Part shown: positions 1 to 64,000 of the stretch, in pieces | Layout: every line of letters begins with the position of its first letter | Position numbering within the stretch: position 1 is the first letter of the stretch | From: Podocnemis expansa | Taxonomy: Eukaryota > Chordata > Testudines > Podocnemididae | Direction: 5' to 3' | NCBI GenBank assembly: GCA_007922195.1 | Contig: ML681981.1 | Location: forward strand, 15,757,940 to 15,821,939 | Length of the DNA: 64,000 nucleotides | Notes under the pieces: model-generated | Database searches by the model: none | Told to the model about the DNA's origin: nothing | Seen by the model: the letters and a program-made list of their open reading frames with translations, nothing else | Program-made: the position numbers and the translations under genes

Positions 1-2418
1 GTTGCTAAGTATCAATTGACCATGCCAGCTTTCAAAGTGGGTGGGCCCTGGCTTGGGGCCATCCTTGGATTTGCAGTAAAGGCAGTTGGCCCATCCCACC
101 CTTTATCTGCTCAGTTGGAGGAACAAGCAGAGCAAGGACAGCAGTGCAGGTCAACAGGCCCTGCTTGCAAAATTCTCTAACTCTGGTTGCATGAATTGCA
201 TTTGTACCCCCCAGTGGAGTACACAAAGACCAGCACTCAAAGAAATTAACAGAAGAAGGTTTAAAAAAAAAAAAAAAAACCAAAAACTTCCAGTAATGAA
301 AGTCTTCTCATTGTCTAATTTGCCTTGAAATTTCCAGAAAAAAATCAAGAGCAAAATTTCAGGTATGCCCATATATTTTTGGCAAAGTTGTATGGATGAA
401 CTTTATCTAGCATTTTTCCATAATTGCATGTGAAGCCTCTAACTATTATTTAAGAAAGCATAGAAGGCCTATAGTGCCTGCTCACAGGTCACTGATTGTT
501 AAATCATTCATTGTAGAGTATGTAGATTTTAAATCTTAAAATCTTTAGTTATTTTCTATATAACCCTACTATTGTCCTCCCAAAGGAACAAAAGTTACAA
601 GGTTATGAAAGTCAAAAAACCCACTTAATAGTGGCTTACCCTTAATAAACTACCATTGAGAAATACGCTTACGTAGAATTGCAAGTTATACAAGTATGCA
701 CAAACAGAATTAAAAACCAAACAATACAGAGCTAATCTAACACCTGCCCACTATCTTCTCTTACTAATGTGGTATTTTAAGCTCTGTGAATGTTTGAACA
801 TCTTACTGAACAGATCAACTTACCTTTCAAACACCTGTAGCTGTTTTCTCCCCTAAAAACATTAATAACTAAACAAAACTCAAAAACAGATCTTTCCTGT
901 GTACATATAGGTGATCAAATGAAAGTCCTCTGCTTATGAAACCATAAACCTTTGTATGGTAATGATAGTGTGACTATTTCTTTAACTAAAGCTCTTCATG
1001 TTATGTAACAGACTGATCAGTTGAACCTCTGATTTCTTCAAGCTTGTTAAATCCAGTTACCAATTGCTTCTCTTGGAAAGAAACAGGGCCTGTTCTTAAC
1101 AGTGTGTTGCCAACTATGGGGTGAGTTATCTCCATAATTACTAAGAAAGCAGGTGACATTGGATAGGAAGCTATATCATCTTGCACATCTAGTTATATTC
1201 AGTTTTGACCTTGTTCACAAAACTTATTTTGTTTTGCTACATAACCAAAGTGAGATTTGAAATTGGTGCATCTCTGAGCAGGACTGGATAAAACTGGCTC
1301 ACAGCTGAGCACTAGCAGTTTTACTTTCCATCTCCAGAAAGCATTCCTCTGTTACATTTCTGCAGTGGAACTAGGCAACAGGTTACTAAAACTGGTTGCC
1401 ATGGTGACCAGAAATATACTTTTTTCAAGGCCTGCTATACAGTGGCCCATAAACATTTACCAACAAACTACTGAAGAAGAGAGCACTTCGTATATTCAAC
1501 TCCACATTAGTCAGTCAAATATAGACTTGACATGCGGATGGACATCGGAAACCAGATCCCACCTTAAATTAAAATATGGAAGGTTCTTAAAAATACTCCA
1601 ATGAACAGTTTTTCTAAATAGAGGTAAAAGCAGTTGCTTCAGTCATCAAAAGCAGTTGAGTCCTACAAGATATGTCAAATTTGGTTGAAATTCACATTTA
1701 AGAAACCAGGGGACAGATCACTTTTAACTGCATCAATTTGTTTCACAAGATGTAGAAGTACAAAAATCATATTTTTAAAACACTGAAGTTTGGTTTTCTG
1801 TTAATGGTTAGTGAAGCAGCTTAATGACCAAAACTGCTTGATAGCCTTGACAAAGCCTGAAAGCACCTAATGTGCAATACTCGCTCAATAATGCAGGACA
1901 ACAACTTTTTAAATATGCATTTTTTTTTCCCTAAGACTAAGGGCTTGATTCACAGCCCAACTAAAATCCCCGGTAACCCTCCTTTCTACTCACTTCAACT
2001 GCCTTTGTATAGGCCCTAAATCTCACTGACCAAGGGAAAAAGTCACATTATCCCAATTAGCATATGACACAATCCCTGGCGTTTCAGACATACTGTGAAG
2101 TAGCTCATCAAGAGCGCCTAAATAACCAAAACTAAACATAAACACTCACAAAAAACCCACATAACTCTTATTCTGGATCTTTTTTTAAACTCATGGAACA
2201 AATTTTCTGCAGCTTTTGGAATAGGAAGCTACTGTATGCTAACTTGTGTTACTTTAGTAAGTGTAAGTCTTTTGAAGCCACCAGATTTAAATCAAACTGT
2301 TAAAAGAAAACTAAACTTCTGACTTGCATGCATAGCATTTAAAAATAAAGCCCAACAACCAAAATTATGTAGTATTTTGATGTTCTGTTTAAAAATGTTA
2401 TATACGTATTGACTAGGG

Positions 2419-15500: not shown

Positions 15501-15696
15501 CTTTCCATGGGAACTAGTAATAGAAATCAAGGAGTACACTCAGTGATAGCAATCTGATTAAATAAAAAAACAGATTAAAATCCCAAAAATTTATCAAATA
15601 AAAATAATCAGAAGTCTTTGCTGGCAAAAAGCTCTAAAATGGCTGTTGTAGACAGGCAGCCTTGTTTATATTCCATCTGGTAGAGAAAAACTTGGA

Positions 15697-15774
15697 AGTC
15701 TGTTAGTCTTAAAGTGCCACAAGACTCCTTGGTTTTTTTTGCTGGACTAGATCAACACGGCTATCCCTTTGGAA
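15697..15774 (+). repeat. Penelope-derived 3' tail fragment
   Basis: Runs from 'tctgttagtcttaaagtgcc' through 'caagactccttgg' to 'aacacggctatccctttgga', the terminal sequence shared with the Penelope element at 50106-51042. It is 5'-truncated and lacks the hammerhead-like part. Confidence 0.75.
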
Positions 15775-27477: not shown

Positions 27478-27532
27478 CAGAACTCCTTGCTTCTTTTGCT
27501 GAACTAGACTAACACAACTGCCCCTTTGGAAC
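27478..27532 (+). repeat. Penelope tail fragment with 9-bp TSD
   Basis: 55 bp of the Penelope terminal sequence (ctagactaacac... cccctttgga), 5'-truncated. Flanked by AAGGAAAAC at 27469-27477 and 27533-27541, so it appears to be a complete, very short insertion in MINPP1 intron 1. Confidence 0.75.
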
Positions 27533-27813
27533 AAGGAAAACTATGTAGCTTCAACCGTATTTATTTCAAGCAGGGCTCTAATGCTGTTTTCCATGATAAC
27601 CGTAGAGACTACTGACAACCACGCTAAAAAACTTTTTCCTCTCTACCAACTGCTACAATACTTGTTTTAAAACTGATTTTCTCACAGGTCTTCAGGTGGC
27701 CTCCTTTATGCACTGATGGGTTTTTACTCTCCTCCCTGCTCCACGGGCAGGAGAGGGAATGGGAAGAAAGAGAAGGCCCTATTCCTGCATTCTGCACTCC
27801 ACTTTTGTCTTAG

Positions 27814-28045
27814 TAAAACAAACAAACAAGGAGCCCTGTTGCACTTGAAAGACCAACTGATTTATTTTTTGCATGAGCTTTCATGGGAGAAGATTCCACT
27901 TCATCACTCTGAAGATGGGGGAAGCTGACAAAGTGGGATTTTCTGCCATGAAAGCTCATGCAAAAAATAAGTCAGTTAGTCTTTTAAGTGCCACAGGATG
28001 ACTTGCTTGTTTGACTCAACTAGGGTAATACGTCTACCCCTTAGG
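27814..28045. mobile_element. Penelope-derived palindromic element with 12-bp TSD
   Basis: About 232 bp arranged head to head. The left half is the inverted copy of the right half: 'ttgcacttgaaagaccaact...gcatgagctttcatggg' mirrored by 'cccatgaaagctcatgc...aagtgccacagga' (approximate). The centre falls near 27905-27930. Flanked by CTTTTGTCTTAG at 27802-27813 and 28046-28057. Each arm carries the hammerhead-like segment, decayed here. Confidence 0.8.
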
Positions 28046-28228
28046 CTTTTGTCTTAGGACGACCCTAACCCCACCTCAGTGAGCGTGCTAGGTCAGGGGG
28101 TCAGCAACCCAAAAGATAAGAGCAGCCATTTTTAAAAATTCCTTCAATAACCAACTGTTTTGAGAGCTGCAATGGCATAGCTGCCTGCTGGCGAGAGAAA
28201 CCAAGAACCAGGAGCGGATCCCCTACAG

Positions 28229-28416
28229 CAGGGGTCTCAAACTCAAATCACCATGAGGTCCGCATGAGGACTAGTACGTTAGCCTGAGGGCCTCACCACT
28301 GAAACCCTTCCATACAACAATATTGCAAACATCAGTACCAATAGTGTTGTTGTGAGCCACAAGAAATAGCTTTAGGGGCTGCAGTTGGCCCACAGACTGT
28401 GTGTTTGAGACCTCTG
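28229..28416. mobile_element. hAT MITE, CAGRGGTCTCAAA family, copy B
   Basis: 188 bp, same length and orientation as copy A at 21959. Begins CAGGGGTCTCAAACTCAAAT and ends TGTTTGAGACCTCTG. Perfect 8-bp duplication CCCTACAG (28221-28228 and 28417-28424). Located in MINPP1 intron 1. Confidence 0.93.
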
Positions 28417-28773
28417 CCCTACAGAGTCCCCACCTTGGCAGAGGGGAGCCTGGAGCCTGACATGGCCTTCTTAGGGTCCCCAGGTCGCAGAGGTGGAGCT
28501 AAGCACACCTGCAACTGTGGGCCACATGCGGCTCTGGAGCTGCAGATTGCAGACAGACCTCCGTGCTAGAAGCACCAAAACTACTCCAAGTAAGCTCACA
28601 CCCTATCTGCCGCAGCCAGTCACGCATGCTGAGGCATCTAGCCAGGCCCAGGCAAAGTCTACCTTAGATCTCACCCCCACAGCAGTGGTGTGTGCTGGGC
28701 ATCCAGCCAGGCCAGCTTGGCCCCACCTTCACCTCAAGCCCCGGAGTGTGCTGTTCTAGGGGGACCCAATTTT

Positions 28774-29863
28774 AGGGTCACCGGATACCAAAGCTAGGGA
28801 AGTACAAAAAGGAGAATTGTGGAGGACACATGAAGAAAACATAGTATTAATGTTAAGCGCCAAAGGGGCAGCTGTGTCAGTCTAGTAAAGCAAAAAAAGC
28901 CAGGAGTCTTGTGGCACTTGAAGACTAACAGATTTATTAATTGCATGGGCTTTCCCTGGAGAAAAATCCAACTTTGTCAGACCTCTGATGACGTGGGATT
29001 TTCTCCCATGAAAGCTCATGCGATAAATGGATCGGCTAGTCTTTAAGTACCACAAGACTCTCTGCCCCCCCCCTTTTTTTTTTTTAGTATTAATATCATA
29101 TTCTTCCATTTTTAGAGGGCCTGGAATGCTTCCCCCTAAAAATAAGGTGTTCTGGGGCCTTCCAGCATCCTTTAACCCCTGTAAGCAAAATGCCAGACAA
29201 AATCATGTCTTTTTAAAATGCCTGGAGGGAAGATGTGACGGTAGACATAGGGTTACCAGATACAAAAGCAGGGAAAGGAGGACAGGAAAGTACAAAAAGG
29301 AGGACACATGGAGAAAACGTAGGATTAATGTAATACTCTTCTGTTTTTAGGGGCCCTTGGAAGGCTTCCCTCTAACAATAAGGTGTTCTGGGGTGTTCCA
29401 GCATCCTTGAACCCCTGTGAGGAAAAAGCTGGACAAATCATGTCTTTTTAAAATGCCTGGAGGGAAGCTGTGATGGTAGACATAGGGTTACCAGATACGA
29501 AAACAGGGAAAGGAGAACACATGGAGAAAATGTAGTATTAACGTATTACTCTTCTGTTTTTAGGGGGCCCTGGAAGGCTTCCCCTACAATAGGGTGATAT
29601 GAGGCTTTCCAGCATCCTTGAACCCCTGTAAGGAAAAAGCCAGACAAAATCATGTCTTTTTAAAATGCCTCGAGAGAAGCTGTGACGGCGGACATAGGGT
29701 TACCAGATACTAAAGCAGGGAAAGGAGGACAGGAAAGTACAAAAAGGAGAACAGATGGAGAAAATGCAGGATTAATGTAACACTCTTCTGTTTTTAGGGC
29801 CCCTGGAAGGCTTCCCCTACAGCAGGATGACACGAGGCCTGCCAGCACCCCGAAGCCCTGCAA
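28774..29863. repeat. tandem array of a 212-235 bp unit beside MINPP1 exon 1
   Basis: Four units start with AGGGTTACCAGATA-like sequence at 28774, 29249, 29484 and 29696, giving periods of 235 and 212 bp once the Penelope insertion in unit 1 (28852-29084) is removed. Each unit has 'ggaaagtacaaaaaggag', 'cacatggagaaaa', 'ttctgtttttagg', and ends with 'catgtctttttaaaatgcct'. The last unit ends within about 100 bp of the exon 1 donor. A dispersed single copy with inverted termini lies at 48726-49032, so the array probably grew from a DNA transposon. Confidence 0.88.
28852..29084. mobile_element. Penelope-derived palindromic element nested in the tandem array
   Basis: 233 bp head-to-head palindrome. 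The left arm begins 'gccaaaggggcagctgtgtc', the right arm contains CTGATGA (28985-28991), a GTGGGA/TCCCAT stem and GAAAGCTCATGC. It splits unit 1 of the tandem array and is flanked by TAGTATTAAT (28842-28851 and 29085-29094), so it inserted after the unit existed. Confidence 0.85.
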
Positions 29864-29869
29864 GTGACA

Positions 29870-30740
29870 GGCCAGCCACCATCAGGCCCGCGGGCCGGCG
29901 GCGGCGGCGGCGGCGAGGGGAAAGGAGACTGTGTCCCCCGGCGGCGGGGCTACCTGTGGCGGGCGGCGGGCGGCGCAGGGCGAGCTGCAGGCCGCGGCGG
30001 AAGGCGGCGCCGCTCTCCAGGCAGCGGTGCTTGGAGCTGCTGGCGAAGGCGAAGCGGCGGCCGGGGGCGAGCAGGCCGGGGAAGCGGGCGGCCAGGCGCC
30101 GGGCCAGGCGCTCCATGTCGAGGCGGCCCTTGGGCGCCAGCCGGCCGTCCATGTCGGGCCGGTACCACAGGTCCCAGGCGGCCAGCTGGCGGGCGGCGGG
30201 GCAGGGCGGCTGGCGGGCGCGCAGCAGGCGGTGCAGCTGGCCCAGCCGGCGGATCTGCTTCTCGGTGGGGAAGCGGGTGCCGTGGCGGAGCAGGGCGCGG
30301 AGCTGCAGCGGGGCGCAGGCGGCGGAGGGCGGCAGGAGCCGGGGGTCGGGCGGGCCCAGGGAGAGCGGCTCCTGCAGCAGGTGCGGGTTCACCTCCTCGT
30401 ACCGGGACTTCGTCCCGAAGTAGCCGCTCAGCCGCGGGGCGGCCGGCGCCGCCTCCTGCGCCAGGCAGACGGGCAGCGGCAGCAGCAGCAGGAGCAGCCC
30501 CGCCAGGGGCCGGCGGCGGCGGCGGCTCGCCATGGCGGGGTGGCGGCGGCGGAGGCTCCGGCTCCGGCTCTGCAGCGAGGAGAGGCAGGCGGCGGGGCCG
30601 GGGCGGGAGAGGAGCCGCCCCCGCCTTACGCTCCGCCCCCGCTGCGGCTGCTGCTCCCGCCTTCCGGCCGGCGGCAGGGCCGGGCTGCTCTGTCGTCATT
30701 GCCCGGGACTGGCCCCGTCCTCGCGACGCGTTGTATTAAC
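29870..30740. promoter_or_regulatory. CpG island covering MINPP1 promoter and exon 1
   Basis: Dense CpG and very high GC in a window that is otherwise AT-rich, with several GGGGCGGGGC-like (Sp1-type) boxes at 30590-30640. It spans the end of intron 1, all of exon 1, and about 200 bp upstream of the start codon. No TATA box is evident, which fits a housekeeping gene. The high GC opens long meaningless ORFs in all frames. Confidence 0.85.
29954..30533 (-). CDS. MINPP1: MINPP1 exon 1 (multiple inositol polyphosphate phosphatase 1)
   Basis: First coding exon: 193 codons plus one base. The enzyme dephosphorylates InsP5/InsP6 and 2,3-bisphosphoglycerate, mainly in the ER lumen. The start Met is followed by a basic stretch and a Leu-rich signal peptide ending near VCLAQ (residue 26). 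Then come YFGTKSRYEEVNPHLL and the histidine-acid-phosphatase motif RHGTRFP (residues 83-89), whose His forms the phospho-enzyme. FASSSKHRC near the end is also conserved. The donor is GCCACAG followed by gtagcc. The family's second active-site motif (HAE) belongs to the last exon, not present here. Exon 1 is GC-rich and diverges from mammals between motifs. Confidence 0.97.
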
Positions 30741-30767
30741 CCGGCCTGCTACGGCTGTGTGAGAAAC

Positions 30768-31205
30768 ATTTCCAGAGGGGGAGCTGTGTTAGCCTGCTCC
30801 GGCCAAAAAACCAACCCAGCAATCGGGTAGCACTTGAAGACTAGCAAAAAAAACAAAAACAAAACAAAACAAGGGGTCATGTGGCACTTAAACACTAGCA
30901 AAAACAAAAAAAAATCACAAGGAGTCATGTGGCACTTAAAGACTAGAAAAAACAAAACAAGGAGTCATGTGGCACTTAAAGACTAACAGATTTATTTTTC
31001 ACCTGAGCTTTGGTGGGAGAAAATTCCACCTCGTCAGATGCTTCGAAGATGGAGGAATTTGCAGAATGGAAAGAAAAGAAATGCTTGCATTCTGTATGTT
31101 CACCCATCTTTGAAGCATCTGATGAAGTGGGATTTTCTCCCACGAAAGCTCATGTGAAAAATAAATCTGTTAGTCTTTAAGTGCCACATGACTCCTTGGT
31201 TTTTT
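30768..31205. mobile_element. Penelope-derived palindrome just upstream of MINPP1
   Basis: About 430 bp. The left arm starts 'ttccagagggggagctgtgt' and contains four tandem copies of an 'aaggagtcatgtggcactta' block (near 30824, 30870, 30920 and 30959). Then come the inverted hammerhead-like segment (30996-31040), a 75-bp spacer, and the plus-strand hammerhead-like segment (31115-31155) with 'tctgttagtctttaagtgcc'. It begins about 235 bp upstream of the MINPP1 start codon, close to the transcription start region. Flanking duplications are unclear. Confidence 0.8.
31115..31155 (+). ncRNA. hammerhead-ribozyme-like motif (best copy)
   Basis: Reads GCAT, CTGATGA, one extra A, a stem GTGGGA/TCCCAC with a 5-base loop, GAAA, GC, TC, then ATGT. 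This follows the hammerhead order: helix I, CUGANGA core, helix II, GAAA core, one-pair helix III, UH cleavage site, helix I. Penelope-like elements are known to carry hammerheads with a minimal helix III. The extra A after CTGATGA departs from the consensus and may abolish or weaken activity. Confidence 0.5.
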
Positions 31206-31538
31206 GGTTAGAAATAGGTGCACAGAGTTTCTGCAGGTCACCTGTTCTGCATGTGGCACCGCACGTGCTAGAAACTTTCAGAGCCAGGGGCAGTTTCTGT
31301 AGCTCACAGGCCACCCGTTCTGCATTAGCGCCTCACAGGCCAGAAACACAGATGCAGGGCCGGCACAACCCAGTAAGCCAGCTAAGCATTGCAGGGGGGT
31401 GCCGACGTTTGAGTGGCACCAAAATGGGGATGGTGCTGTTGCGCTCCACTGATGATGTCACTCGTCTGCACTGGCATCACCGCACTGCAGGGGTGCGCCA
31501 GAAACCTGAGTGCCATTCCTGCAGAGATAGGTAACATG

Positions 31539-36919: not shown

Positions 36920-37075
36920 TAACAAAAGAGTCCTGTAGCACTTAAAGAGTAACAGATTTATTTTTGCATGAGCTTTTGTGAGAGAAAATCCCACTTTGTT
37001 AGATGCTTTGAAGATGAGGGAACTTACAGAATGGAAAGATGACAAATGCAAGGGAGTGTAAAACATGGGACCAGG
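36920..37075 (-). repeat. Penelope-derived fragment, inverted
   Basis: Contains 'gtagcacttaaagagtaaca', 'tgcatgagcttttgtgagag' and 'cactttgttagatgctttga', the reverse complement of the Penelope terminal region, including its hammerhead-like segment (decayed). No plus-strand arm is present, so this copy is not palindromic. Confidence 0.75.
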
Positions 37076-37230
37076 TCATACAGTAACAGCAAATCAGAGC
37101 AATTCTTACTCTTTCTTTTATTTAAAAACACTTGCAGTTACCTCTGTCAGAGTCCTTTTTAAAATCTTCCCCTGATCTCATCAGTTATTCTTTGACCAAC
37201 ATATTCTCCATAATACTTTTATTTATAGAG

Positions 37231-38059: not shown

Positions 38060-38160
38060 ACAAATTCCAAAGTAGTAGCCGTGTTAGTCTAGTTCAGTAA
38101 AACAAACAAGGAGTCTGGTGGCACTAAAATTCATTTATGCCACCAGACTGGTGCTTTGTT
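38060..38160. mobile_element. minimal Penelope-derived foldback with 13-bp TSD
   Basis: 101 bp. The left part reads 'tagccgtgttagtctagttc' then 'aaacaaggagtctggtggca'; after a 14-base spacer comes the inverted 'tgccaccagactggtgcttt'. Flanked by TTGAATATTGGTG at 38047-38059 and 38161-38173, a clean duplication. The hammerhead-like part has been lost and only outer arms remain. Confidence 0.85.
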
Positions 38161-38988
38161 TTGAATATTGGTGCTATGCAAGACTACAGCCTGAACAGCA
38201 ACTCTGTCTTCAGTCCCACTGGTACACTCTAATCTGGAAGGGCATCCTCAGCAGCACATGGAAGTCTACTAATTTCAGCTGAATAAGCCAGGTCATAGAG
38301 CCACGCCAATCAATATTCCAGTAGGTCAATTGCATGAAGGCAAAGCATCAGCTCAGATTGCAAGTTTGCATGGCATCATTTTAGTCAGATGTTTTAGAGA
38401 TGCCACGATACTCTTCTGACAAAGGCAGGGTTTTGAGGACTAACTATTTTACCATTATAAAACTTTAAAAAGCCATATTTTCTATATAATGCATTTTTAA
38501 AGGGAAAAGATCTTCTGTTTGGGGTTTTGTTTGGCAATTCCTTTAAATGGATCTCCAAGAACAATCTGGGGCAGAATTTTACCTGCACAAGTTCTACCAG
38601 CAGACTCCTTATAAAAAAGTTATCCATCCTGTCCTACCAGCCACCCAACAGCTTTCTTTGGACAGATCTGGGGGCAGCAAACAGACTCAACCTCCTGTGT
38701 TTTATAGGCAACACAAACACTAGTGAAGATAAAGAAACAAGGAGATCTGAAGGAATCAGTAACATGAGCAAGAAATAATTAATAATAGTAAAAATGAGTG
38801 AGCCCTGAAAATATACAAATGAATCTGTCTAGGTATAGTAACTGGAATCATGACTACTTCATGGGAAACCAAATCTGACAAAGTAGAAATAATGAAAAAT
38901 ATAAATGATGTTACTTTGCAAGGTGAGATGATCACAAACTCCCTACAGAGGAATGAAAGACTCTAGGTAGGAGACCCATACAGGTTAC

Positions 38989-39149
38989 AGTAAAACAAAG
39001 AAGGAGTCCCATGTCACTTTTAAAGACTAACAAATCTGTCAAATTAAATAAATTTCTTAAATTTATTTTTTAGTCTTTAAAAATGCCACAGGACTTGTTT
39101 ACTTTGCTGAACTAGACTGACATGACTACCTCTCTGGAACTTGTTATTG
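38989..39149. mobile_element. Penelope-derived palindrome with 8-bp TSD
   Basis: Left arm 'agaaggagtcccatgtcact', right arm 'tgccacaggacttgttta' and terminal 'ctagactgacatgactacct'. The arms meet in an AT-rich centre (39035-39075) without the hammerhead-like segment. CAGGTTAC occurs at 38981-38988 and 39150-39157. Confidence 0.7.
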
Positions 39150-39820
39150 CAGGTTACGGATCCCAGCCATGGCACATCCAAGCTAACATGGCACAAAGCC
39201 ATACTGCAGAAAGCAGTGCTGTTGTATAGGCAGTTCTGGAAATGCAAGAACAAAAGGAGATAGCCCATGGCAAGCCCTGTTTACAGAACTAATGCTGCTC
39301 GTTGATTACAAGGCAAAAATATAGCTGATTGCAAAAAAAGACAAAAACAAAAATCCACATGTTGATGAGCTAAGAAGAATAGGGCAATCTTCCCATTGCT
39401 GAGCAGGACTCCAACTCACAGCTGGTTTGCTACCTGTGTGACAGAGACAAGCCTGATGGCTACAGGAGGGTGCTCATGTTTGAATAGCGGGTTTTGCCTC
39501 ACCACAGGTAAAACTCCTCCCAGAGCCTAAGGGAAGGAAGCACTGGGCCCAGGTCCAACTAATTACGGGGGACAACTAATGAAAGAACAGGGACAGGTGT
39601 GAGGGTCACAGGTTTAAATGAGGTATGTGGAAGGGGACACCGAGCAGAGAACCCTGGACAGCACCCACTGCTCCCGAAAGTTGTCAAGGGAGCCAGTGGA
39701 TTCTACCTGGAGACATGATCAAACAAGGGACCAGAAATAGGCCCCACAGTCAGAGATCTCTATCTGCCATCCTCCTCTCCCTGGTCTTATAGATGGCTGA
39801 GGGGCAGGGACAGGGCAGGA

Positions 39821-42860: not shown

Positions 42861-44092
42861 GGCTATGTCCACGCACAAGTCATAAAATTGATTTAACTGA
42901 AATCTATTTAAGTTAAATCAATATAAAAATCATTAAATCAATTTAATTTAAATTGATTTAACAGGTCCAAACCAAAAACCTGAAATCAAGCTAGTATGTC
43001 TGGGGACAGGAACTGCTAGTTTGATTCAGGAGAGGGGCACCATGGGAGGTGTTGCAACATGGCCCCCTGGCAGGGCCATGTTGCCACCCGCTCCCCTCTC
43101 TGGGTCTCCCCAGGACAGACAGTATCATGGGAAAAAAAGCCCCCACTGGCTCTGGGCTCCTGGAGTCCAGCAGGGGAATGGACATCCCTCCAGACTGGCT
43201 GAAGCCTTGCAGCTCAGCCAGCCATGGGGAAAAGAGGACCCCACATGCCCAGCTTTCCCTGCTGTAACCGGGCATTGGGGGCAGGGATCCCTGTGTGCCT
43301 GGCTTTCCCCACACTACCTGGTCAGTGGAGGAAGGGAGCCCAGTGTGCCTGGCTTCCCCTCTTGCTAGCTGGGTGGTGGGGGAGGGATCCCTGCATGCCC
43401 AGCTTTCCCTGCGCTAGCCGGGCAGCAGAGGCAGGGAGCCCCGTGCACCTAGCTTCCTTCCCTGCTAGCCAGGCGGCACCCCAGCTAGCCGCTCCACCCC
43501 ATGCAGGCTAGCAGGGGGAGAAGCTGGGCTCATAGGGCTCCCTTCCCCAGCTGCCTGGCTAGCATGGGGGGAAGCCGGGTGCATGGGGATCCATGTCCCT
43601 GCCTCCCGGCTAGCACCGTGAGTGGGGCACGGGGTGTTCCCCCCCATAACCCCCCCAGGGTGCTGGGAACTGGGCTGGGTGCTTTGCCTCACCAACCAGC
43701 CAACCAGCACCAGCTGGGGGTGGGGGGGTTGACCCTCCCTGTACCTCCCCTCCCTCCCTGACCAGGGTCCTGATCCCCACACTGGCCAGGGTGCTGATTG
43801 GGGGATTCCTTCCAGGGTGCCATGCACCCTGGGAGGAAGGAGGTCAGACCCCTTATATTGATATATTTTTATATCGATATAACAGGTCCACACAGTGTTA
43901 TATCAAAATGACAATTTGATACAACCCTCATCTCAATATAATACTAGGTTTTTTTATATCAAAGTTATTTTCCTTATTTCAAAATAAGGGAGCTTCTTAC
44001 TTCGAAATAAGTAAACATCATGTGGGCCTAAATTATTTTAAATCGAAATAATCAGCATGATTTCCATTTAAAACCTGTGTGTGGGCATGCCC
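42861..44092. mobile_element. PIF/Harbinger deletion derivative with internal minisatellite
   Basis: 1232 bp. Starts GGCTATGTCCACGCAC and ends with the inverted GTGTGTGGGCATGCCC; the flanks are TCA and TAA. The left part shares 'atgggaggtgttgcaacatgg' with the left end of the autonomous element (45592 onward). The right part shares 'caccctgggaggaagg' and 'ggtcaga' with the region upstream of the Myb gene. Between them both genes are gone and a 50-bp minisatellite has expanded. TTTCGAAA boxes are partly replaced by ATCGATAT-type boxes. Confidence 0.8.
43230..43490. repeat. 50-bp minisatellite inside Harbinger derivative
   Basis: GGGATCC/GGGAGCC markers occur at 43284, 43334, 43384 and 43434, an exact 50-bp period, with 'ctggctttccc...ctagccgggc' between. 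From about 43530 to 43620 related units appear in inverted orientation, making a long inverted repeat around 43500. Confidence 0.85.
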
Positions 44093-47353: not shown

Positions 47354-48594
47354 TTAGGCAGGGCCTGTGTGTGGGTCCGGGGGTGGTGGTGTCAGAGGCG
47401 GCTTTTGGGGTAAGCGAAGTAGGCGGTGGCCTAGGGCCCCGAGCTGTAAGGGGGCCCCATAGCAGCCGCCTGCTTTACTCAGCCCTGCGCTGGCGGGGCA
47501 GTGGGGAAGCGGAGGGCAGCAGGGAAGCAGAGGGTGGCGGACAACCAGGTCCAAAAGCTTTGCCGCCCGCCTCCCAGACCAGCCTCTCTCCAGTAGGGGC
47601 AGAGAAGCGCTCCCCGCCCTACTCCCAGCCGGACGCACATCCCCAGGGAGAGGGAGGAGACCGGCCGGCGCAGCGCTGCGGCTTGCTGGGAATGGGGCCT
47701 CCTGGAGCGGCCCGCTCTGAAGAGTTCTGGCCACTTCCAGTCCTGGGGTAGCCGGGGCAAAGTGGCCTGAAATCTTCGGAGTGCACTGCTCCAGGGGACC
47801 CCGCTCCCGGCAAGCCGCAGCACCACGCCAGCTGCTCTCTTCCCTCCCCCTGGGGACGTGCGGCCAGCTGGGAGTAGGCAGGGAGCGCTGCTCCACCCCT
47901 GCTGGAGACAGGCTGATCTGGCAGGCAGGCAGCAAAGCTTTTGGACCTGGTGGTGCACAGCCCCCCGCTCCGTCCCCGTGGGAGTTGGGACTGTGGGGGG
48001 AGCAGCTAGGGTGGCAGTGGGGGCCCAGAGCTCCGGTGAGGGTGGCATCGGGGGTTGATAGGGGGCCCCATAAAGGGCCTTCGCCTAGGGCCCCCAATTC
48101 CCTAAGGCCGCCTCTGGGTGGTGTTCCCTGCCCCTGCCCACAGCCGCTCCTGGGAGGGCCAGGCATTAAACTCCCTGCAGCTGCTGGGGGGGCTGTCTGC
48201 TCCACCAGCTGGCGGAGGCTGGTGATAATCGCCTCCACTACAGTGGGCAGATGGTCACAGAGGCGCTCGATGGCCTGCACCTCGCACACGCTGGACTGTG
48301 TCTGGAGCTTGCTGGCCTGCGCATGGCGCTTGATGGCCTGTGCCTGGCGCTCCAGGGCGGCAACCACCCGGTCATCTGCCGCTGACGCCTGCTGCAGCAG
48401 GTGGAAGGCTGAGTCCTGCCGCCTGGCTTGTTCCTGCCACCAGGCCTGGGTGGACACCTCAGTCCTCTCCCCCAGCTCCTTGAGGCTCTCCAGGAGCTTG
48501 GCTCGCATCAGGGGGGCCCTCCTCCTCCGCCATGCTGGCGTCAGGCTGAGGCATCGGGCAGGTGGTGGTGGATGGCGAGCGGCTGAGTGACCTG
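47354..48594 (-). pseudogene. Harbinger Myb protein, exon 2 (coiled-coil), with hAT insertion
   Basis: The acceptor ...tgcttccctccag at 48595 gives a frame that fits the exon 1 donor. It encodes a basic RRRRAPLMRAKLLESL segment, then a long helical, heptad-like stretch: RQDSAFHLLQQASAADDRVV, ALERQAQAIKRHAQASKLQ and IERLCDHLPTVVEAIITSL. This is typical of the C-terminal dimerisation part of Harbinger Myb proteins. The hAT element at 47393-48116 follows, then a short original tail ending PPDPHTGPA. Without the insertion the spliced product would be about 370 residues. Confidence 0.75.
47393..48116. mobile_element. hAT-type element, 724 bp, inserted in the Harbinger Myb gene
   Basis: Starts CAGAGGCGGCTTTTGG and ends with the inverted CTAAGGCCGCCTCTG. 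Perfect 8-bp duplication GGTGGTGT (47385-47392 and 48117-48124). 'ggcctagggcccc' and its inverse 'gggccttcgcctagggcccc' lie just inside the ends. No transposase. The insertion plus duplication adds 732 bp, a multiple of three, and has no stop in the Myb reading frame. Confidence 0.93.
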
Positions 48595-48725: not shown

Positions 48726-49032
48726 TAGGGCTACCAGATCCCAAAGCCTCAAAAGGAGGCCAGGAAAGTACAAAAAGGAGAACATTGGAGGACACATGGG
48801 AGAAAATGTATATGGCTGTGATATTCTTAGGTGGTTAGGGGGCCCTGGAACACTTTCCTGTACAAATAAGTATTCTACAGCATTCCAGGATCCTTCAACC
48901 CTTACAGTAAAAAGCCTGACAAAATCCTGTATTTTAAACTGCCTGCCAGATAGAGAATGTGAGGATCAGAAGAAGAACAGGACAGTAAAGAGGGGACCAT
49001 GTTCTCCTTTTGCCTGACATCTGGCAACCGTA
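48726..49032. mobile_element. DNA transposon copy related to the MINPP1 tandem array
   Basis: 307 bp in the Myb intron. Begins TAGGGCTACCAGATCCC and ends with the inverted GACATCTGGCAACCGTA; CCCTGG occurs just outside both ends. Its interior ('ggaaagtacaaaaaggagaa', 'cacatgggagaaaa', 'ggatccttcaaccc') matches the 212-235 bp units at 28774-29863. It provides the termini that the array lacks. Confidence 0.75.
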
Positions 49033-49381
49033 CCCTGGAGGCACACATGCTAGTGGTGCCCACAAGGGTGAGCTGGACTCAGCCATGCCTTGCTCTAGGC
49101 GGTCTCCCAAGGCCACTTGCCAGTGGCAAGACCTGCATGCTCTCCACCCCGCCCAAGATGTGGCTGCATCTTTGACACCCAGCCCCTGTTAACCACCCCA
49201 GGCACATAGGGGCCTGTGACCTTGGTACCACCTGTCTCTCAGGGACCTGTGGTCATGGGAGGGCCTCTGCACCTGCCGACCCTGTGCCCTACCTGCCCCA
49301 GTGCCCGGCCCTGTACCCCCTCACTGCCCGTGACCTGGACAGGCCCAGCCCTGCGTGCTTCTGCGGGAGGGGAATACTCAC

Positions 49382-49985
49382 CCACAGGGGCTCCAGAAGT
49401 CTGGCGCAATGTCCCGGGGTCTGTCTCAGAGTCGGCAGGGGCCAGGATGGTGTCAGGCCCCCTGCTCCTTGGTGCTGCTCTCTGCCTCGGGGCCAGGGAA
49501 CAGCTCTGGGGTCCTGCGGGCAGCCTCCGCCGCTGATGGTGGTGCGGCAGGGGGTCCTCAATGGAGACATCCGACCCCTTCTCCGCATCCTCCAGGCCAG
49601 AGGATGGGCTCTGGCGCATCCCTGTATCCACGGCCTTGGCAGGGAGACCACTGGGTTCCGGCCCCAGGAATGCATGGAGCTCCTCATAATAGGGGCAGGT
49701 AGCAGTGCTACCTGCCCCCTGGAGCCCCTGGGCCTTGCAGGTCCTGGCATGGTCCTGCCTGAGACCCTTGATTTTACTGCGGACCTGCTCAGTTGTCCAC
49801 TTGTGCCCTTGGTCGGACATCGCTGCAGCAATGTCCGCATAAATGTCTCGGTTCCGGTGGCTAGCCCGGAACCGGGACATGATGTCCTCCCTGCGTCAAA
49901 TGCTGAGGAGGCAGTGGACCTCCTCAGGTGTCCAGATCGGGGCATGGCGTCGGCCTGCTGCAGCGTTGCTGCCATGTGCTGCCAT
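49382..49985 (-). pseudogene. Harbinger Myb/SANT-like protein, exon 1, one nonsense codon
   Basis: From Met at 49985: MAAHGSNAAAGRRHAPIWTP, then EEVHCLLSI, then a TGA (codon 30) where the related copy at 40571-41161 has Trp, then RREDIMSRFRASHRNRDIYADIAAAMSDQG and WTTEQVRSKIKGLRQDHART. This is the trihelix-type Myb/SANT DNA-binding domain of PIF/Harbinger. An acidic/proline-rich linker follows to the donor GTGG followed by gtgagt (49376-49382). It leaves in phase 1, which matches the exon 2 acceptor at 48594. The intron is 787 bp. One stop codon is the only obvious defect. Confidence 0.82.
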
Positions 49986-50105
49986 GCTTTGGAGGGCTTG
50001 TGGCCACGCTGGCAGGCATGCCCAGGCAGGGACTTCCTGTTTCCCCTGGGTGCTGTGCACCCCGGGAAGAAGGTCAGACTGTTATTTCGAAACAACGCTT
50101 GTGTT

Positions 50106-51042
50106 GTTATGGGGAAGGCTAATTAGCAAAAACAGAACACCACTGGTCATCACCTCCAGTCCCCAGCTTACCATAAATCTCTCCAACACATCATCAAAGA
50201 TCTACAACCTGTCCTAGAAGATGATTCCACACACTCTCAAGCGTTGGGAGACAGGCCTATCCTTGCTTACAGACAGCCCCCAGCCTGAAGCAAATACTCA
50301 CCAGCTACCTAACACCATACAACAAGAACACTCATCCAGGAACCTATCCCCGCAACAAACCCTGTTGCCAACTCCGCTCGCACATCGACTCCGGTGGTTC
50401 CAGCACAGGTCCCAACCAAATCAGCCACAACATCAGGGACTCTTTTACCTGCACGTTCACTAATCTGGTATATGCCATCATCTGCCAGCAATGCCCCTCT
50501 GCCATGTACATTGGCCAAACCAGACTGTCCTTATTGAAAAGGATAAAGGGACACAAAACAGACATCAAAAATGGCAAGATCCATAAACCAGTAGGAGAAC
50601 ACTTCAATCTCCATGGACACTAAGTAGCAGACTTGACAGTTGCCATACTTCAACAAAAAAACTTCAGAAACAGATTTCAGTGTGAAGCTGCAGAGTTGGA
50701 GCTAATCTGCCGGTTTGACACAATCAGATTGGGTCTGAGTAGGGACTTGGAATGGCTAACACATTACAAAAAGTGATTGATCTGTTCACACATTCTTTCC
50801 CTTTGATCAACTGGTATGAAAGGACCCCATCTGCTCTCTGAACTGACTTTGCTAACACTTGCCCTCCTGCACCCTGGCACGCGTATATATACCTCTCAAT
50901 GGTAGTTTTCAGTTTATGCATCTGATGAAGTGGGTTGGAGCCCACAAAAGCTTATTCCCGAAGATCTCTGTTAGTTTATAAGGTGCCACAGGACTCTCGT
51001 TGTTTTTGCTATACACAGACTAACACAGCTACCGCTCTGGAA
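50106..51042 (+). mobile_element. Penelope-like (Neptune-type) element, 5'-truncated
   Basis: Plus-strand fragment with the C-terminal end of the Penelope polyprotein, a GIY-YIG domain and the terminal repeat region. It begins where the Harbinger right end is lost. The 3' part holds a hammerhead-like segment at 50928-50950 and the tail 'gttagtttataaggtgccac' to 'aacacagctaccgctctgga' near 51040, the same tail seen in the short repeats elsewhere in this window. Confidence 0.85.
50190..50776 (+). pseudogene. Penelope polyprotein C-terminus: RT end + GIY-YIG endonuclease
   Basis: Upstream part, split by frameshifts: DRPILAYRQPPSLKQIL, then YPRNKPCCQLRSHIDSGGSS, the conserved region after the Penelope reverse transcriptase with its Cys-rich linker. 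From 50456 one frame reads FTNLVYAIICQQCPSAMYIG, QTRLSLLKRIKGH, PVGEHFNLHGH: the GIY-YIG signature (YAI...MYIG), the catalytic Arg and the Glu in EHFN. A TAA follows NLHGH; the frame then continues (VADLTVAILQ...) to a TGA at 50774. Not functional. Confidence 0.85.
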
Positions 51043-52679
51043 ATTGTAGTGTATCCCATTCTTTTGTTGATAAAAACTGACTTTTGTCTACAAAACTGTG
51101 TCGTGTAGACAGAGCCTTACATGCAGAATGAAAGGCTCTCATCTTTATTGCCTCCTCTTATATTCCCCATAATCCATTCTCTGTACCTCAATCGTTCTGC
51201 TTCCCCCTTGTCTCCCCTGCTAATTTATTCTCAGGTGTGCATATCCTGCCGCCTATGTACATGAATGGCCTCCCCTCCCACACTGCCCCATTAACTTAAT
51301 ACTTACCTTGTATGTGGATTGACAGATATGTGAATAAACACCCTTTTTTGGGCAGAAAACAATTGGTCAACTCTGTCTTGATGCAGACTTTAGGAACATA
51401 ACATATCTTTGGTATAAGTAACTCCTTATAGAGTATTTGTATATATTTTTCATAATGACATGAATGACCAATGTGACAAGGTTTGTATTTAAAGACCTTG
51501 GGTCACTGCGATGAACCAGAATGTAAATATCAGTATATTGTTGTAACTCTGTTGCCAGATGGCATTGACCTTTTCTGAGTGTTACACAAGGAAAACCAAG
51601 AGCTTTCCTAAACAGCATCTCCCATCTAGATTAAACTATATTCTAGATACCTTGGATTTCATCCAGATCTCAGACATGATTAGCCATTAAAAAATCTGAG
51701 ACTGCACTACTTGGACCAGACAGAAAAAGAAGTGTGGGGTTGTATGTTCAGCCTTTATATCTGCAACAGCAGCCTCCCATATTCAATGAACAGGAGATGT
51801 GATCCACTAGAAATCTGCAATATTTCACAAAAGTGGAGAGAGTAATTAGCCAGTGTGATGTTGTCTGGATTTAGGAGATCATTTATGATTATTTTTCATA
51901 TTAACAATATTTCATATTTGCAATAATCTATATGTGATATGCCCCATTATGTACCAATAGAAAGGTTGTAACCTGCTAGGAATGATTGTATGGTTTATAG
52001 TGTAGAAATTTTTGTTGTATTACAAGTTAGGAATATGTTTGTTATATCTGTATCTCAACCTGTGTAATTCTGGAAGACACCACAGACAGCATGTCTGCAA
52101 CTATTGTCTCCTTAATGGCCCATTAAGGGAACTCACAGGGATAGTGGGCCCAGGGAGAAACCTGCTCAGTGAGTCACCCAGACCGACCATGTGACTCAAC
52201 TCCATTTTGTTTGCAAAAACTCCACACAGTTCTTAAGGAATGTCAGAAGTGATAAAAAGCAGCAGCCCCAGCTCCATTTTGTCTTCAGTCTCCAACCAAC
52301 ACCAATCTCTTGATCTATTGCTCTGTGACTGGACAAAGGACTGAGGCCCACTGAGGTGCTGGGTGTCTACCAGAGGAACTAAACAAGTCTGAAAACTCCA
52401 AATTCTTCCAAGGACTTGCTTTATATGGGTGCTCAATCATTTGTATGTATGTAATTCACTGTGACCCTTTAACATCTCTCATATTTTGTTTCTTTTCTTT
52501 TTAAATTCAATCTTAAGTTTTAGTTACTGAAGAACTGGCTGGCAGTGTGCTACTTTGGGTAAGATCCAAAGCTATATTGTTCTATATAATGTGGCTGGCC
52601 CTTTGGGGTGAGAAGATATTCTTTAAGAGACCATGTGACTAGGTAGGAGCCAGAGGAACTGAAGAGTGATAAAGGCAGT
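51043..52679. repeat. unclassified old dispersed repeat, possibly LTR-related
   Basis: AT-rich, no ORF with a known domain. 'gtgtcgtgtagacagagcc' (51098-51116) looks like the end of a Harbinger-type MITE whose left end is missing. 51890-52660 has features I associate with a dispersed reptile repeat ('cagcatgtctgcaactattg', 'gtgactcaactccattttgt', 'gaactggctggcagtgtgct'). It may be an old LTR fragment, but I see no paired LTRs or coding region. Confidence 0.35.
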
Positions 52680-54560: not shown

Positions 54561-55060
54561 GCAGGGAATGGGTCCTGGATCTCTGGCTGGCAACCCAACT
54601 GGAAGGGGCCCAATCCGGCTCCAGGCCACTTCCACCGAGCAGCGGAGGCTCAGAGACAGCTCCAGTCGCTTGTAAGAAGCTGCAAGAACCATCTCCCTCT
54701 TCAAGCTTCCTGAAAGAGGCTCGAAGCTGGAGATGGTCTGTGCCACTTTTCACAAGCAGCAGGAGCCGTCTCCAAACACCAGCCACATGGAGACGGCTCC
54801 TGCTGCTTGCCAGCAGTAGCAGGGGCTTGATCCGGTTTTGAGCCTCCTCCCGGAGGCTGGAAGAGGGAGACAGTTCCTGTGGTTTCTCACAAGCAGCTGG
54901 AGCCATCTCTGAACAGCTATCATTTGGAGATGGCTCCTGCTGCTTGTGAAAAGTGGCATGGACTGCCTCCAGCTCTGAGCCTCTTGCAGGAGTCTTGAAG
55001 CTGGATCAGGCCCCTGCTGCTGCCAGTAAGCAGCAGCGTCAGTGGCTGGATTGGGCCATG
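54560..55060. repeat. cluster of inverted 'agcagcaggagccgtctcc' repeats
   Basis: A perfect 21-bp inverted repeat pairs 54753-54773 with 54789-54809 (15-bp loop). A longer one pairs 54741-54776 with 54923-54958, 35 of 36 bases. Further partial units ('agctggagatgg', 'gcctcttgcagg') occur in both orientations, so it is an array of units in mixed orientation. Confidence 0.85.
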
Positions 55061-60880: not shown

Positions 60881-61670
60881 TGGTGTGTTCACACAGGCTT
60901 CTTATCTCGAAACAACAGAGGATGTTTCGAAATAAGAAACAGCATGTCCATACGACGTACTCCCATTTTGAAACAAGGGGCTCCCTTGTTTCGAAATGGG
61001 AGCCATGTTTCAAAACGGCTTAAACCTCCTTCCGTTTCGAAACATGGTTGTTTTGAAAACAGTGGTTTCAAAACGACCCTGTGGGGACATGTTGTTTCGG
61101 AACAAACTGTTCCGAAACAACATTTGACCTTCCTCTCAGGGTGCTTAGCAGGTGACCTTCCTCCCAGGGTGCTGAGGGGTGTCCCCTGTCCGGCAGAGGG
61201 GGACTGCAGACCCCCGCGGGGTGAGCCGCAGGCGGCAGGCAGGCTCATCCCACAGGGGTCTGCAGGGGGACCGCAGATCCTGGCGGGGTGAAGCTGAGCC
61301 AGGCGCCTCACCCTGCTGGCTTTTTGCCGGCGGGGTGGAGCGCCTGGCTCCACTTCACCCGGCTGGGGTCTGCAGTCCCCTGCAGAACTCAGCGGGTGAA
61401 GAGCCCGGCTGCGCTCACCCCACCTGGGTCTGCAGCCCTCTGCAGACCCCTGGGGGGGGGAGCCACCGGCTCCTCTCACCCCGCAAGGGTCTGCAGCCCC
61501 CCCGAAGTGAAATAGCATGTCCACACTGTGGACATGCTATTTCATTTCCCTTATTTCGAAGATACTTTTTTGTCTTTCGAAATAAGGTGTTTCGAAATAA
61601 CACATTATTTTGAAACGGCTTGTTTCAAAACGGCTTGTTTCGAAACAAGCACTTGTGTGTGAACATAGCC
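60881..61670. mobile_element. PIF/Harbinger deletion derivative with 60-bp minisatellite
   Basis: 790 bp. Left end TGGTGTGTTCACACAGG, right end the inverted GTGTGTGAACATAGCC. TTTCGAAA-type boxes fill both ends. 'tgaccttcctcccagggtgc' (61151-61170) is the reverse complement of the subterminal block of the other three copies. The core (61180-61500) is a GC-rich minisatellite with 'gggtctgcag' at 61366, 61426 and 61487 and inverted units to the left. No gene remains. Flanking 3-mers do not match clearly. Confidence 0.8.
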
Positions 61671-64000
61671 TTGGAGTGTATGCGGGTAATTCGCAGGGAG
61701 AAACAGTTAAGGTTACCTGGATGTGTGTACTTTAACTCTGTATTTCTGTTTTTTTGAAATCTGAATTTCATCGAACTCAATGTTCTGGAAGGTTACAAGC
61801 TGACATGGAAAACCATAACCCTGTACTAATGTCTTTTTTTTCCCCCATTTCATTAGGATGTAATGTAGAAAGCATGGGCATGCTGTTCCCTGTATCTTTT
61901 GACTAGCCTTAAAATTCCTTGGACTAAATTTGCACTTGGTATAACTCCACTGAATGGAGTTAGTTACATCAGTGATTAATTTGGAGCTGTAGGTTTATAT
62001 GGGTTGGGTTAGAAGAGGAGGTGGGGAGTTGTGGGTTTTTAAGATCAGTTCCAAAAGGGTAGCCGTGTTAGTCTAGTACAACAAAACAAACAAGGAGTCT
62101 GGAGGCACTTTTGAAAACTAACACATTTATTTATTACATGAGTTTTTGTGGGAGAGTGTTTGACGAAGTGGCATTCTCTCTCACAAAACGCTCATGAGCT
62201 AAATATAAATAAATTTGTTAGTCTTTAACAGGGCCACCAGACTCCCTGTTAGATCAGTTTGAGCCAGTTCCTGTAGGTGGTGCGAGAGAGCATAAAAATA
62301 ATACTGACTTGTTATGTTCTCTTTGACTAAGGCTTAATTTAAGCAAACATGTATTCATCAGCTCTGGATTTCTGTCCTAACAGATGTGCACATGCAAAAG
62401 CCAAATATCAGCCACAATTACTTTTCCCTTGTCCTTCAGCTAAAGCAAAAGTCACCTATGTCTTCCTTTTTTTTAGTGATACTACGGTTCCTTTTGTTTC
62501 AAGGTTTCTTTCTCACTTTTTCTTGTCACGACTTCTGTGAACTACCATGTTTCAGATGCAGTACCAATTATTTGCATAGCAGTTTTTATAGTTGCTTCCT
62601 TTTGTATCCACATACACTTCAATTTCACTCCTGCATACTGTTTTCAAGACAAGTATTTTGGGAAAGTTATTACTACTAATGTCCTTAATGTGTCATTGTC
62701 TTCTTATGACAGCTGATAACTGATCAAAAGAAGATATTCCTTATGTACATCTTTACCGCTTAGTGATTGCTTGCCAAAATACAGTTTGATTTTTCTCCCT
62801 GAAATTCTATTTATTTCCCCATAAATTCTATTCTTTATATGATAGACTTTTTTCTTACCTATATTAGTTTTTGCAACCGATAGGTGCTTTTCTGCTCTTT
62901 ATCATATGTGTGCAGATTGCACACATCAAGTATTTTGTAGATAATCTACATGGTAATATAGTATAAAAGTGCTCTAGGAGTTTATCTTCACTGCAGAATT
63001 AGCCCAGATGATAGGCACCTGGGCTGGGTCTAGTGCTTGGGTTAACCTAGCCTCACTTTGAGCACCTCCACTCTATAGCCATCACTTCTTTACTGTGCCC
63101 TCACTGTTAATGCCTTCACCCATGTGTGTTTAGGGGCATATCTCATGTTTTTTTGTGGTGATATGCTCTATTTTCTCCCAGCTACTTGTGAGAGAACTTG
63201 TCCATAGTTTGATAGGGAGAGGACTGTGGGCAGGCACTGAAGGACTAGTAGAGCTAGAGAGATTGGCCTGTGTCCTCATAGCAAAGTAGAGAAGCTCCAG
63301 CACAAGTTAAAGGGGAGTCCAGATTCTAACTTATATCCCCAACCAGGTACGCTATACTGTGTACTTAAGACATACGATGCTTGGTTGCATGCGCTGTGTA
63401 CTAAGATGAACTTGGAGGCAAGTCCTATTGGTGTTCCAGGTAAAGCAGGGTAGAAATGTCTAAAACAATACATTTTGGGTTTCTTAATTTATCCTGAAAA
63501 GTGGCCTTTATAAAAAAAAATGAATTTTTGTGAAAAACTGCTGAAAACTTTTACCAAAATGACTATTGAATTTTTTTTTCATTAAATGAAAACCAAGTTT
63601 AAAAAAAATCAATAACTGTTTCAGTGCTGCTTGTAAATGATTTTATCTTTTGACATGCTCCAGTTCTAATTACTAGGCTTAACTGTCTCCCCATAAACAC
63701 ACATTTCAGGTCACTAATACGATTCAGATACTATGGCTGGCAGAAAACTGAAGGTTCAAGTAGTCTAGGAAGAGCTACTTGAACAATTACAAATAAAATC
63801 AATCCAACAATTCCTATGTCAGTCTTAGGGGCAGTTCTGCATAAGAATGTGCAAATAACTTGTGGTTTTGGTTTGCTGGCAGTTCTTGAGGTGAGGAAAA
63901 TGTTTCAGGTCTAAAACCAGTTTGGGACAAAAAATTGTGCCCAGCTATATGTAGTTCAAATACAGGGATATAAAATTAACAATGGCAGTAGTCTCTATTC
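61671..64000. other. AT-rich non-coding DNA, right flank
   Basis: Apart from the Penelope-derived palindrome at 62051-62250 I see no feature. Short ORFs (for example 62386-62679) have no domain. Confidence 0.55.
62051..62250. mobile_element. Penelope-derived palindromic element with 9-bp TSD
   Basis: 200 bp. Left arm 'ccaaaagggtagccgtgtta' and 'aaggagtctggaggcact', centre near 62155, right arm 'ctctcacaaaacgctcatga', 'tttgttagtctttaa' and 'ccaccagactccctgtt'. Flanked by AGATCAGTT at 62042-62050 and 62251-62259. The hammerhead-like core is decayed (GACGAAGTGG in place of CTGATGAAGTGG). Confidence 0.85.

What the first reader, a model, noticed from the sequence alone, without database searches (positions are those of the whole stretch)
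27814..28045. Penelope-derived palindromes that move as units, each arm carrying a hammerhead-like segment
At least five places (27814-28045, 28852-29084, 30768-31205, 38989-39149, 62051-62250) hold the terminal region of a Penelope element in head-to-head orientation. Three are flanked by clear 9-12 bp target duplications and 38989-39149 by an 8-bp one, so the palindrome itself was inserted rather than formed by two insertions. Penelope elements are known to have inverted or tandem terminal repeats and hammerheads. A short, mobile, non-autonomous palindrome built only from the terminal unit would be a distinct class of parasite, and its RNA would be self-complementary with two ribozyme-like arms.
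Basis: partly seen in the sequence, partly recalled or inferred. Interest (0 to 1): 0.75.

Follow-up and report, generated by a model that had tools for sequence, protein, structure and literature searches.

The report
Two-armed Penelope insertions, newly made
The palindromes are insertions of a Penelope-type jumping gene whose two halves point outwards, most likely each made afresh from a normal copy rather than by a new self-copying palindromic parasite, and they seem to record how such elements start DNA synthesis from both sides of the cut.

Summary
The palindromes are real, and a sixth lies at 38060-38160. Five of the six have 8-13 bp target duplications; copy B interrupts a repeat whose uninterrupted paralogues show the empty site. 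The family is Penelope-like: a genome relative of the unit (L065) continues from a GIY-YIG endonuclease ORF (28.7 bits, cut-off 22.6).

The "mobile palindromic parasite" reading is not supported. Among 47 centres examined one exact coincidence was found (L044/L100), and those two carry different both-arm variants. L098 and L101 share four private variants but not the centre. Arms within a locus resemble each other more than arms of other loci (0.844 against 0.773; 0 of 20,000 permutations), and there is no arm-specific lineage.

Most pairs have one long end and one about 34 nt shorter (24 of 27; 17 of 18 in random sample plus window); single insertions use either end. An Anolis Penelope enzyme has two adjacent reverse-transcription start sites and extends both target strands (PMC11167929). 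I therefore read these as de novo products of both-strand target priming. Fold-back self-priming is the main rival.

A partial hammerhead core lies in 7 of 12 arms of A-F and is intact in 2; Rfam finds no hammerhead.

The parts
27814..28045 (+). Palindrome A: short arm left, long arm right (long 3' end at 28045); TSD CTTTTGTCTTAG at 27802-27813 and 28046-28057
28860..29062 (-). Palindrome B: long end left, short end right, then a C/T tract; TSD TAGTATTAAT 28842-28851 and 29085-29094; empty site in paralogues 29248-29459, 29512-29670, 29731-29817, 48759-48945
30769..31209 (-). Palindrome C: long end left, with the arm's outer piece repeated several times in tandem; short end right; no convincing TSD
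38060..38160 (-).
38989..39149 (+). Palindrome D: short arms that stop before the hammerhead-like segment, 10-nt extension after the long end; TSD CAGGTTAC 38981-38988 and 39150-39157
62051..62250 (-). Palindrome E; TSD AGATCAGTT 62042-62050 and 62251-62259
50128..51042 (+). Single Penelope copy of a related subfamily: degenerate GIY-YIG ORF (50225-50620, below Pfam cut-off) followed by the same terminal unit and long end
36921..37108 (-). Single copy, 5'-truncated, ending at the short start site
15696..15774 (+). Single copy, long end
27478..27531 (+). Single tail-only copy, long end, flanked by AACAAAGGAAAAC / AACAAGGAAAAC (read by eye)
31119..31147 (+). Hammerhead-like core CTGATGA...GAAA in one arm of C; extra A before stem II

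Best explanation
These are insertions of an endonuclease-bearing Penelope-like retroelement. The endonuclease makes a staggered cut. Both target strands then prime reverse transcription on ordinary, non-palindromic Penelope RNA, one at the outer start site (ref 199) and the other at a start site about 34 nt upstream (ref about 165). The two cDNAs stop early and are joined head to head, and repair of the stagger leaves an 8-13 bp duplication. Shown here: the duplications, one long and one short end, arms from one source, varied centres, and linkage to a GIY-YIG ORF. Strongly suggested: formation anew each time. Inferred: that both strands prime, that a dimer or a single RNA makes the two sites differ, and how the ends are joined.
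For: TSD of 8 bp or more in 17 of 25 pairs against 10 of 600 mispaired flanks. Ends long+short in 24 of 27 pairs and 17 of 18 in random sample plus window, above the 50% ceiling for independent choice (P 2.5e-5 and 7.3e-5). Single copies use either end, 9 long and 7 short in random sample plus window (my reading). Arms need not overlap: L087b long arm 170..199 against short arm 107..165; L074 long arm only about 15 nt. Centres vary; L098 and L101 share four private variants but not the centre, and so do L044 and L097 for one variant. Arms of one locus are alike. The RNA-sense strand continues from a GIY-YIG ORF. 5'-truncation ladder. The Anolis Penelope enzyme cleaves and extends both strands from two adjacent internal start sites that match an optional 30-40 bp tail (PMC11167929).
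Against: No direct proof of two primers. Inner ends of the two arms correlate over all 27 pairs (Spearman 0.69) but not in the random sample alone (0.16, n 12); if real, the coupling fits fold-back or a shared RNA end better than independent templates. Two same-sense cDNAs cannot anneal directly, so end joining must be assumed. Eight of 25 pairs lack a TSD of 8 bp. L044 and L100 share one centre exactly, and L107 and L108 to within 2 nt, which needs junction hotspots if formation is always anew. Two loci left out of the count (L068, L071) have two long ends.
Confidence: 0.63

Rival explanations
1. Fold-back self-priming: one cDNA starts at the target, its 3' end folds back and copies itself, giving the second arm; a form of this (self-priming on an antisense template) was proposed for bdelloid Penelope elements.
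For: Inner ends agree within a median of 16 nt over 27 pairs; several centres are near-symmetric (B, L069, L072). Proposed in PMC3846280.
Against: In 13 of 24 long+short pairs, 11 of them by more than 10 nt, the short-ended arm extends further inward than the long arm, so it was not copied from that arm. Arms that do not overlap occur (L087b, L074). It does not by itself explain why the second arm stops about 34 nt before the first start, at an end that single insertions also use. No coupling in the random sample (r 0.16).
Confidence: 0.25
2. A mobile, non-autonomous palindromic family copied as a unit.
For: Palindromes are numerous and have target duplications; 30 places besides the query match the L044 palindrome on both strands (my count). 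L044 and L100 have the same junction letters; L107 and L108 nearly so.
Against: L044 and L100 differ in a variant that L044 carries in both arms, and are only the 31st most alike of 55 pairs in their set; L107 and L108 likewise carry different both-arm variants. The other fetched centres differ in letters. Long/long arm identity across loci 0.782, short/short 0.777, long/short 0.773: no arm lineages. L098 and L101 share a source but not a centre.
Confidence: 0.06
3. Longer elements with inverted ends (known from other Penelopes) that lost their middles after insertion.
For: Pairs with wider spacing exist (L050, L055).
Against: Centres carry few extra letters, 0-8 in 19 of 25; pairs are about half of all events in the random sample, so deletion would have to be very common.
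Confidence: 0.05
4. Two separate insertions next to each other.
For: L086 holds two neighbouring single copies, each with its own short direct repeat (by eye).
Against: One TSD flanks the whole pair in 17 of 25; paralogous empty sites lack both arms (B, L089); one long plus one short end is the rule.
Confidence: 0.01

Closest known systems
Penelope families of the rotifer Adineta vaga (Pen2a_Av and others, PMC3846280)
   Same: Insert bounded by head-to-head pLTRs, a 31-bp tail on one of them, the inverted pLTR 37 bp shorter, TSDs of 8-10 bp
   Different: The inserts described in the passages I read hold ORF, truncated ORF or captured DNA between the pLTRs; here many inserts are only the terminal region, some about 100 bp
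Poseidon/PAc of Anolis carolinensis (PMC11167929)
   Same: GIY-YIG element; two adjacent start sites giving an optional tail; a hammerhead described by stems I and II; both strands cleaved and extended in vitro
   Different: In its main text the word 'inverted' occurs only for a blocked primer end, so inverted insertions are not discussed there under that word; how the unit here lies relative to the ORF start was not tested
LINE-1 twin priming (recalled, no call)
   Same: Two primers, inverted 5' part, single TSD
   Different: In twin priming the second primer lands elsewhere in the RNA; here both arms begin at the same pair of start sites

Membership tests
EN-containing Penelope-like elements | GIY-YIG endonuclease ORF linked to the terminal unit | tested here: met
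   L065:670-1362 PF01541 E 1.6e-6, 28.7 bits, cut-off 22.6, same strand directly upstream of the arm; window copy 50225-50620 only 19.7 bits, below cut-off
EN-containing Penelope-like elements | Telomerase-like reverse transcriptase domain | not tested
   No copy was searched for it further upstream
EN-containing Penelope-like elements | Short TSDs and 5' truncation | tested here: met
EN-containing Penelope-like elements | Inverted pLTRs with a 30-40 bp tail on one | tested here: met
   24 of 27 pairs long+short, about 34 nt apart
Hammerhead ribozyme | CUGANGA and GAAA core with stem II | tested here: inconclusive
   Consensus has both, but with an extra A before stem II; 31 of 67 spanning pieces keep both motifs, copy C counted twice through L043
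Hammerhead ribozyme | Match to Rfam hammerhead models | tested here: not met
   No hammerhead hit: whole window at gathering score; 27500-31400, 50700-51200, and L061, L072, L044 at E up to 5
Mobile palindromic family | Copies at different sites share one centre and its variants | tested here: not met
   One exact junction coincidence among 47 centres, with different both-arm variants

The most novel reading that the evidence does not exclude
Each inverted Penelope insertion records one concerted reaction in which two enzyme subunits prime opposite target strands on one RNA and, because only one can occupy each start site, almost always leave one long and one short end. That would make Penelope integration mechanistically distinct from both LINE and LTR integration, and readable from genomes.
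Probability: 0.3. Interest if true: 0.6.

Novelty: new member of a known kind. Interest (0 to 1): 0.38.

Why it matters
How Penelope elements integrate is largely unknown; one 2024 enzyme study was found here. Head-to-head insertions are about half of the copies in the random sample of this genome (12 of 25 events in 200 kb of one contig, my count), so they are a large natural record of the reaction. They support priming on both strands and add a rule, one long and one short end, that a purified enzyme could test directly. They also warn annotators that these palindromes can mimic MITEs and microRNA hairpins.

Tried and rejected
Prokaryote, viral and phage collections: no match in phages; pattern hits in the others are taken as chance (best E 0.001). 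Protein search with the GIY-YIG fragment: no homologue at 1e-3; no solved structure by sequence. Hammerhead pattern in the window: 3 matches, 1.12 expected, 9 of 100 shuffles reach 3, so no weight. One arm folded alone does not beat shuffles, z +0.91. Rfam microRNA, Phe_leader and similar hits below gathering score are taken as hairpin look-alikes. The fold and stem I search at the end of the script looked for a string absent from the consensus and gave nothing usable. Strong coupling of inner ends (Spearman 0.81, 25 pairs) weakened after I looked for hidden short arms: 0.69 over 27, 0.16 in the random sample; I do not rely on it. The long+short rule was not counted because the query itself is long+short. 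My first reading, that all centres differ, was wrong: L100 was aligned in the wrong orientation, made on re-checking, show the L044/L100 coincidence. I lowered the best explanation from 0.65 to 0.63 and raised the mobile-unit rival from 0.04 to 0.06 for it.

Rows dropped before counts: L043 (the window's own C), L050 and L055 (arms far apart), L068 and L071 (both ends long; arms spaced or nested), L082 (nested; but not 88), L086 (two singles). L073, L074 and L058 were added for after and are not in the TSD test; L073 and L074 rest partly on reading flanks by eye, since their scores (12, 14) lie below the 99% null (23), as does L087b (20). End classes were set by me; L079 was called long despite a damaged tail. 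Some pair boundaries (L044, L079) were set after looking at the sequence. In the count of 25 random events nested L082 and one piece cut by the edge of L079 were left out; the 9 to 7 count of singles leaves out a 27-nt piece in L080 and a weak hit at 19750. In one search the L092 hit is its own flank and the L043 hits repeat the window.

Full report
What is there. The window lies in an unnamed 2.39 Gb genome. Six compact head-to-head repeats share one terminal unit: A 27814-28045, B 28860-29062, C 30769-31209, D 38989-39149, E 62051-62250 and F 38060-38160. Single copies lie at 15696-15774, 27478-27531, 36921-37108 and 50128-51042. Exact target duplications: A 12, B 10, D 8, E 9, F 13; C none. 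Copy B interrupts a repeat present uninterrupted at 29248-29459, 29512-29670, 29731-29817 and 48759-48945, and twice in L084. L089 likewise has uninterrupted paralogues at window 28097-28148 and in L088. These are the two palindromes with such sites among the 17 tried.

What family. In genome copies of the same unit the RNA-sense strand continues upstream with a ladder of 5' truncations into an ORF. In L065 this ORF matches GIY-YIG, PF01541, 28.7 bits against a cut-off of 22.6, E 1.6e-6. The window's own copy at 50225-50620 scores 19.7 bits, below the cut-off. The resemblance of the ORF to Penelope proteins beyond this domain is recalled, not tested; no reverse transcriptase domain was looked for.

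How the copies are built. I collected 30 loci by similarity and 20 evenly spaced 10-kb stretches of one contig, C1, as a random sample. On a 199-nt reference the 3' ends fall mostly at about 199 (long) or about 150-170 (short). Of 27 head-to-head pairs, 24 have one long and one short end and 3 have two short ends; in random sample plus window it is 17 of 18. Two further loci with both ends long (L068, L071) and two with widely spaced long and short arms (L050, L055) were left out as not compact or nested. In random sample plus window single copies end long 9 times and short 7 times (my reading), so independent choice would give at most half long+short; P is 2.5e-5 and 7.3e-5. Pairs are 12 of 25 events in the random sample (my count, with the omissions listed under Tried and rejected). 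TSDs of 8 bp or more flank 17 of 25 pairs against 10 of 600 mispaired flanks; of 10 bp or more, 13 of 25 against 0 of 600.

Made anew, most likely. In the 27 pairs inner ends range from ref about -380 to 185 and no two loci have the same pair of inner ends, though L069 and L083 lie within 3 nt with different filler. As a harder test I took the best genome matches to two whole palindromes, L044 and A, and read 10 centres of each: 10 of 30 L044-like places (my count) and 10 of 39 A-like places. One of the 20, L100, has the same junction letters as L044, and L107 and L108 agree to within 2 nt; the others differ in letters, some by only a few. But L044 carries in both arms a variant (GCATTTGTTAG) that L100 lacks and that L097, with a different centre, also carries in both arms; L044 and L100 are only the 31st most alike of 55 pairs; L107 and L108 carry different both-arm variants. 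The L044/L100 junction lies where the two arms share three letters, by my reading, so a recurrent junction is plausible. L098 and L101 share four private variants that the other eight and L044 lack, yet their centres differ and each holds element letters that the other lacks. Arms of one locus are 84.4% alike, arms of different loci 77.3%, with 0 of 20,000 permutations reaching the observed value; long/long is 78.2% and short/short 77.7% (21 pairs). In the window alone the true pairing of A-E was best of 120, and that of A-F was reached by 23 of 720.

Mechanism. Frangieh et al. 2024 (PMC11167929; I read parts 1 and 2 of 4 and searched passages) report that an Anolis Penelope protein cleaves and extends both target strands, starts reverse transcription at two adjacent internal sites that account for an optional 30-40 bp genomic tail, and is predicted to dimerise. 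Head-to-head insertions with one long and one short end and a single TSD follow if both strands prime. That is my reading, at 0.63. The fold-back alternative, in the form of self-priming on an antisense template, was proposed for Adineta vaga Penelopes (PMC3846280; passages and Discussion read). Against simple fold-back: the short-ended arm reaches further inward in 13 of 24 long+short pairs, and arms without overlap exist (L087b, L074). For it: inner ends agree over all 27 pairs (Spearman 0.69), though not in the random sample (0.16, n 12).

Hammerhead. The consensus of 111 aligned pieces has, by my reading, GCAT-CTGACGA-A-GTGGGA-TTTTC-TCCCAC-GAAA-GC-TC-ATGC. That is a core with stem II, a possible 4-bp stem I, no stem III and one extra A before stem II. 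Of 67 pieces spanning it, 31 keep CTGANGA and GAAA (copy C is counted twice through L043). Rfam reports no hammerhead in the stretches scanned, and one arm folded alone is no better than shuffles. The Anolis hammerhead is likewise described by stems I and II and needs protein, so loss of function is not proven. In a palindromic RNA the arms pair with each other, which should hinder a hammerhead in either arm.

Novelty. Inverted pLTRs, the one-sided tail and the TSDs are in print for Penelopes (also PMC8969392 passages). In nine literature searches, of which I saw listings and the passages named above, I saw no description of terminal-only palindromes at this frequency in a vertebrate; most subscription journals are not held. 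I file this as a new member of a known kind whose value is mechanistic.

Noticed in passing
29820-30695 (-): GC-rich frame with a histidine acid phosphatase domain (PF00328, 40.9 bits); by recall the first exon of MINPP1, which would make the host a vertebrate.
   Followed up: partly
28780-29860 and 48759-48945: Tandem or dispersed host repeat of about 200-240 bp that supplies the empty sites for palindrome B; also in L084.
   Followed up: partly
47526-47969, 54650-55036, 43335-43621, 61198-61507: Other long inverted repeats (71-89% complementary) that did not match this unit; possibly DNA transposons.
   Followed up: no
30807-30961: In palindrome C the outer piece of the long arm is repeated about four times (40-54 nt spacing), as if reverse transcription restarted or slipped near the short start site.
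   Followed up: no
49289-50122 (-): 277-codon open frame next to the single Penelope copy; no Pfam match.
   Followed up: partly
29063-29084: C/T homopolymer tract between the short end of palindrome B and its target duplication.
   Followed up: no
L044 centre (near 1697); L093, L094, L096, L097, L100: Six of the 11 L044-set centres have one arm ending at ref -28 to -31, beside a possible small hairpin GGTTTGAACC in the RNA; a possible reverse-transcription pause site.
   Followed up: no
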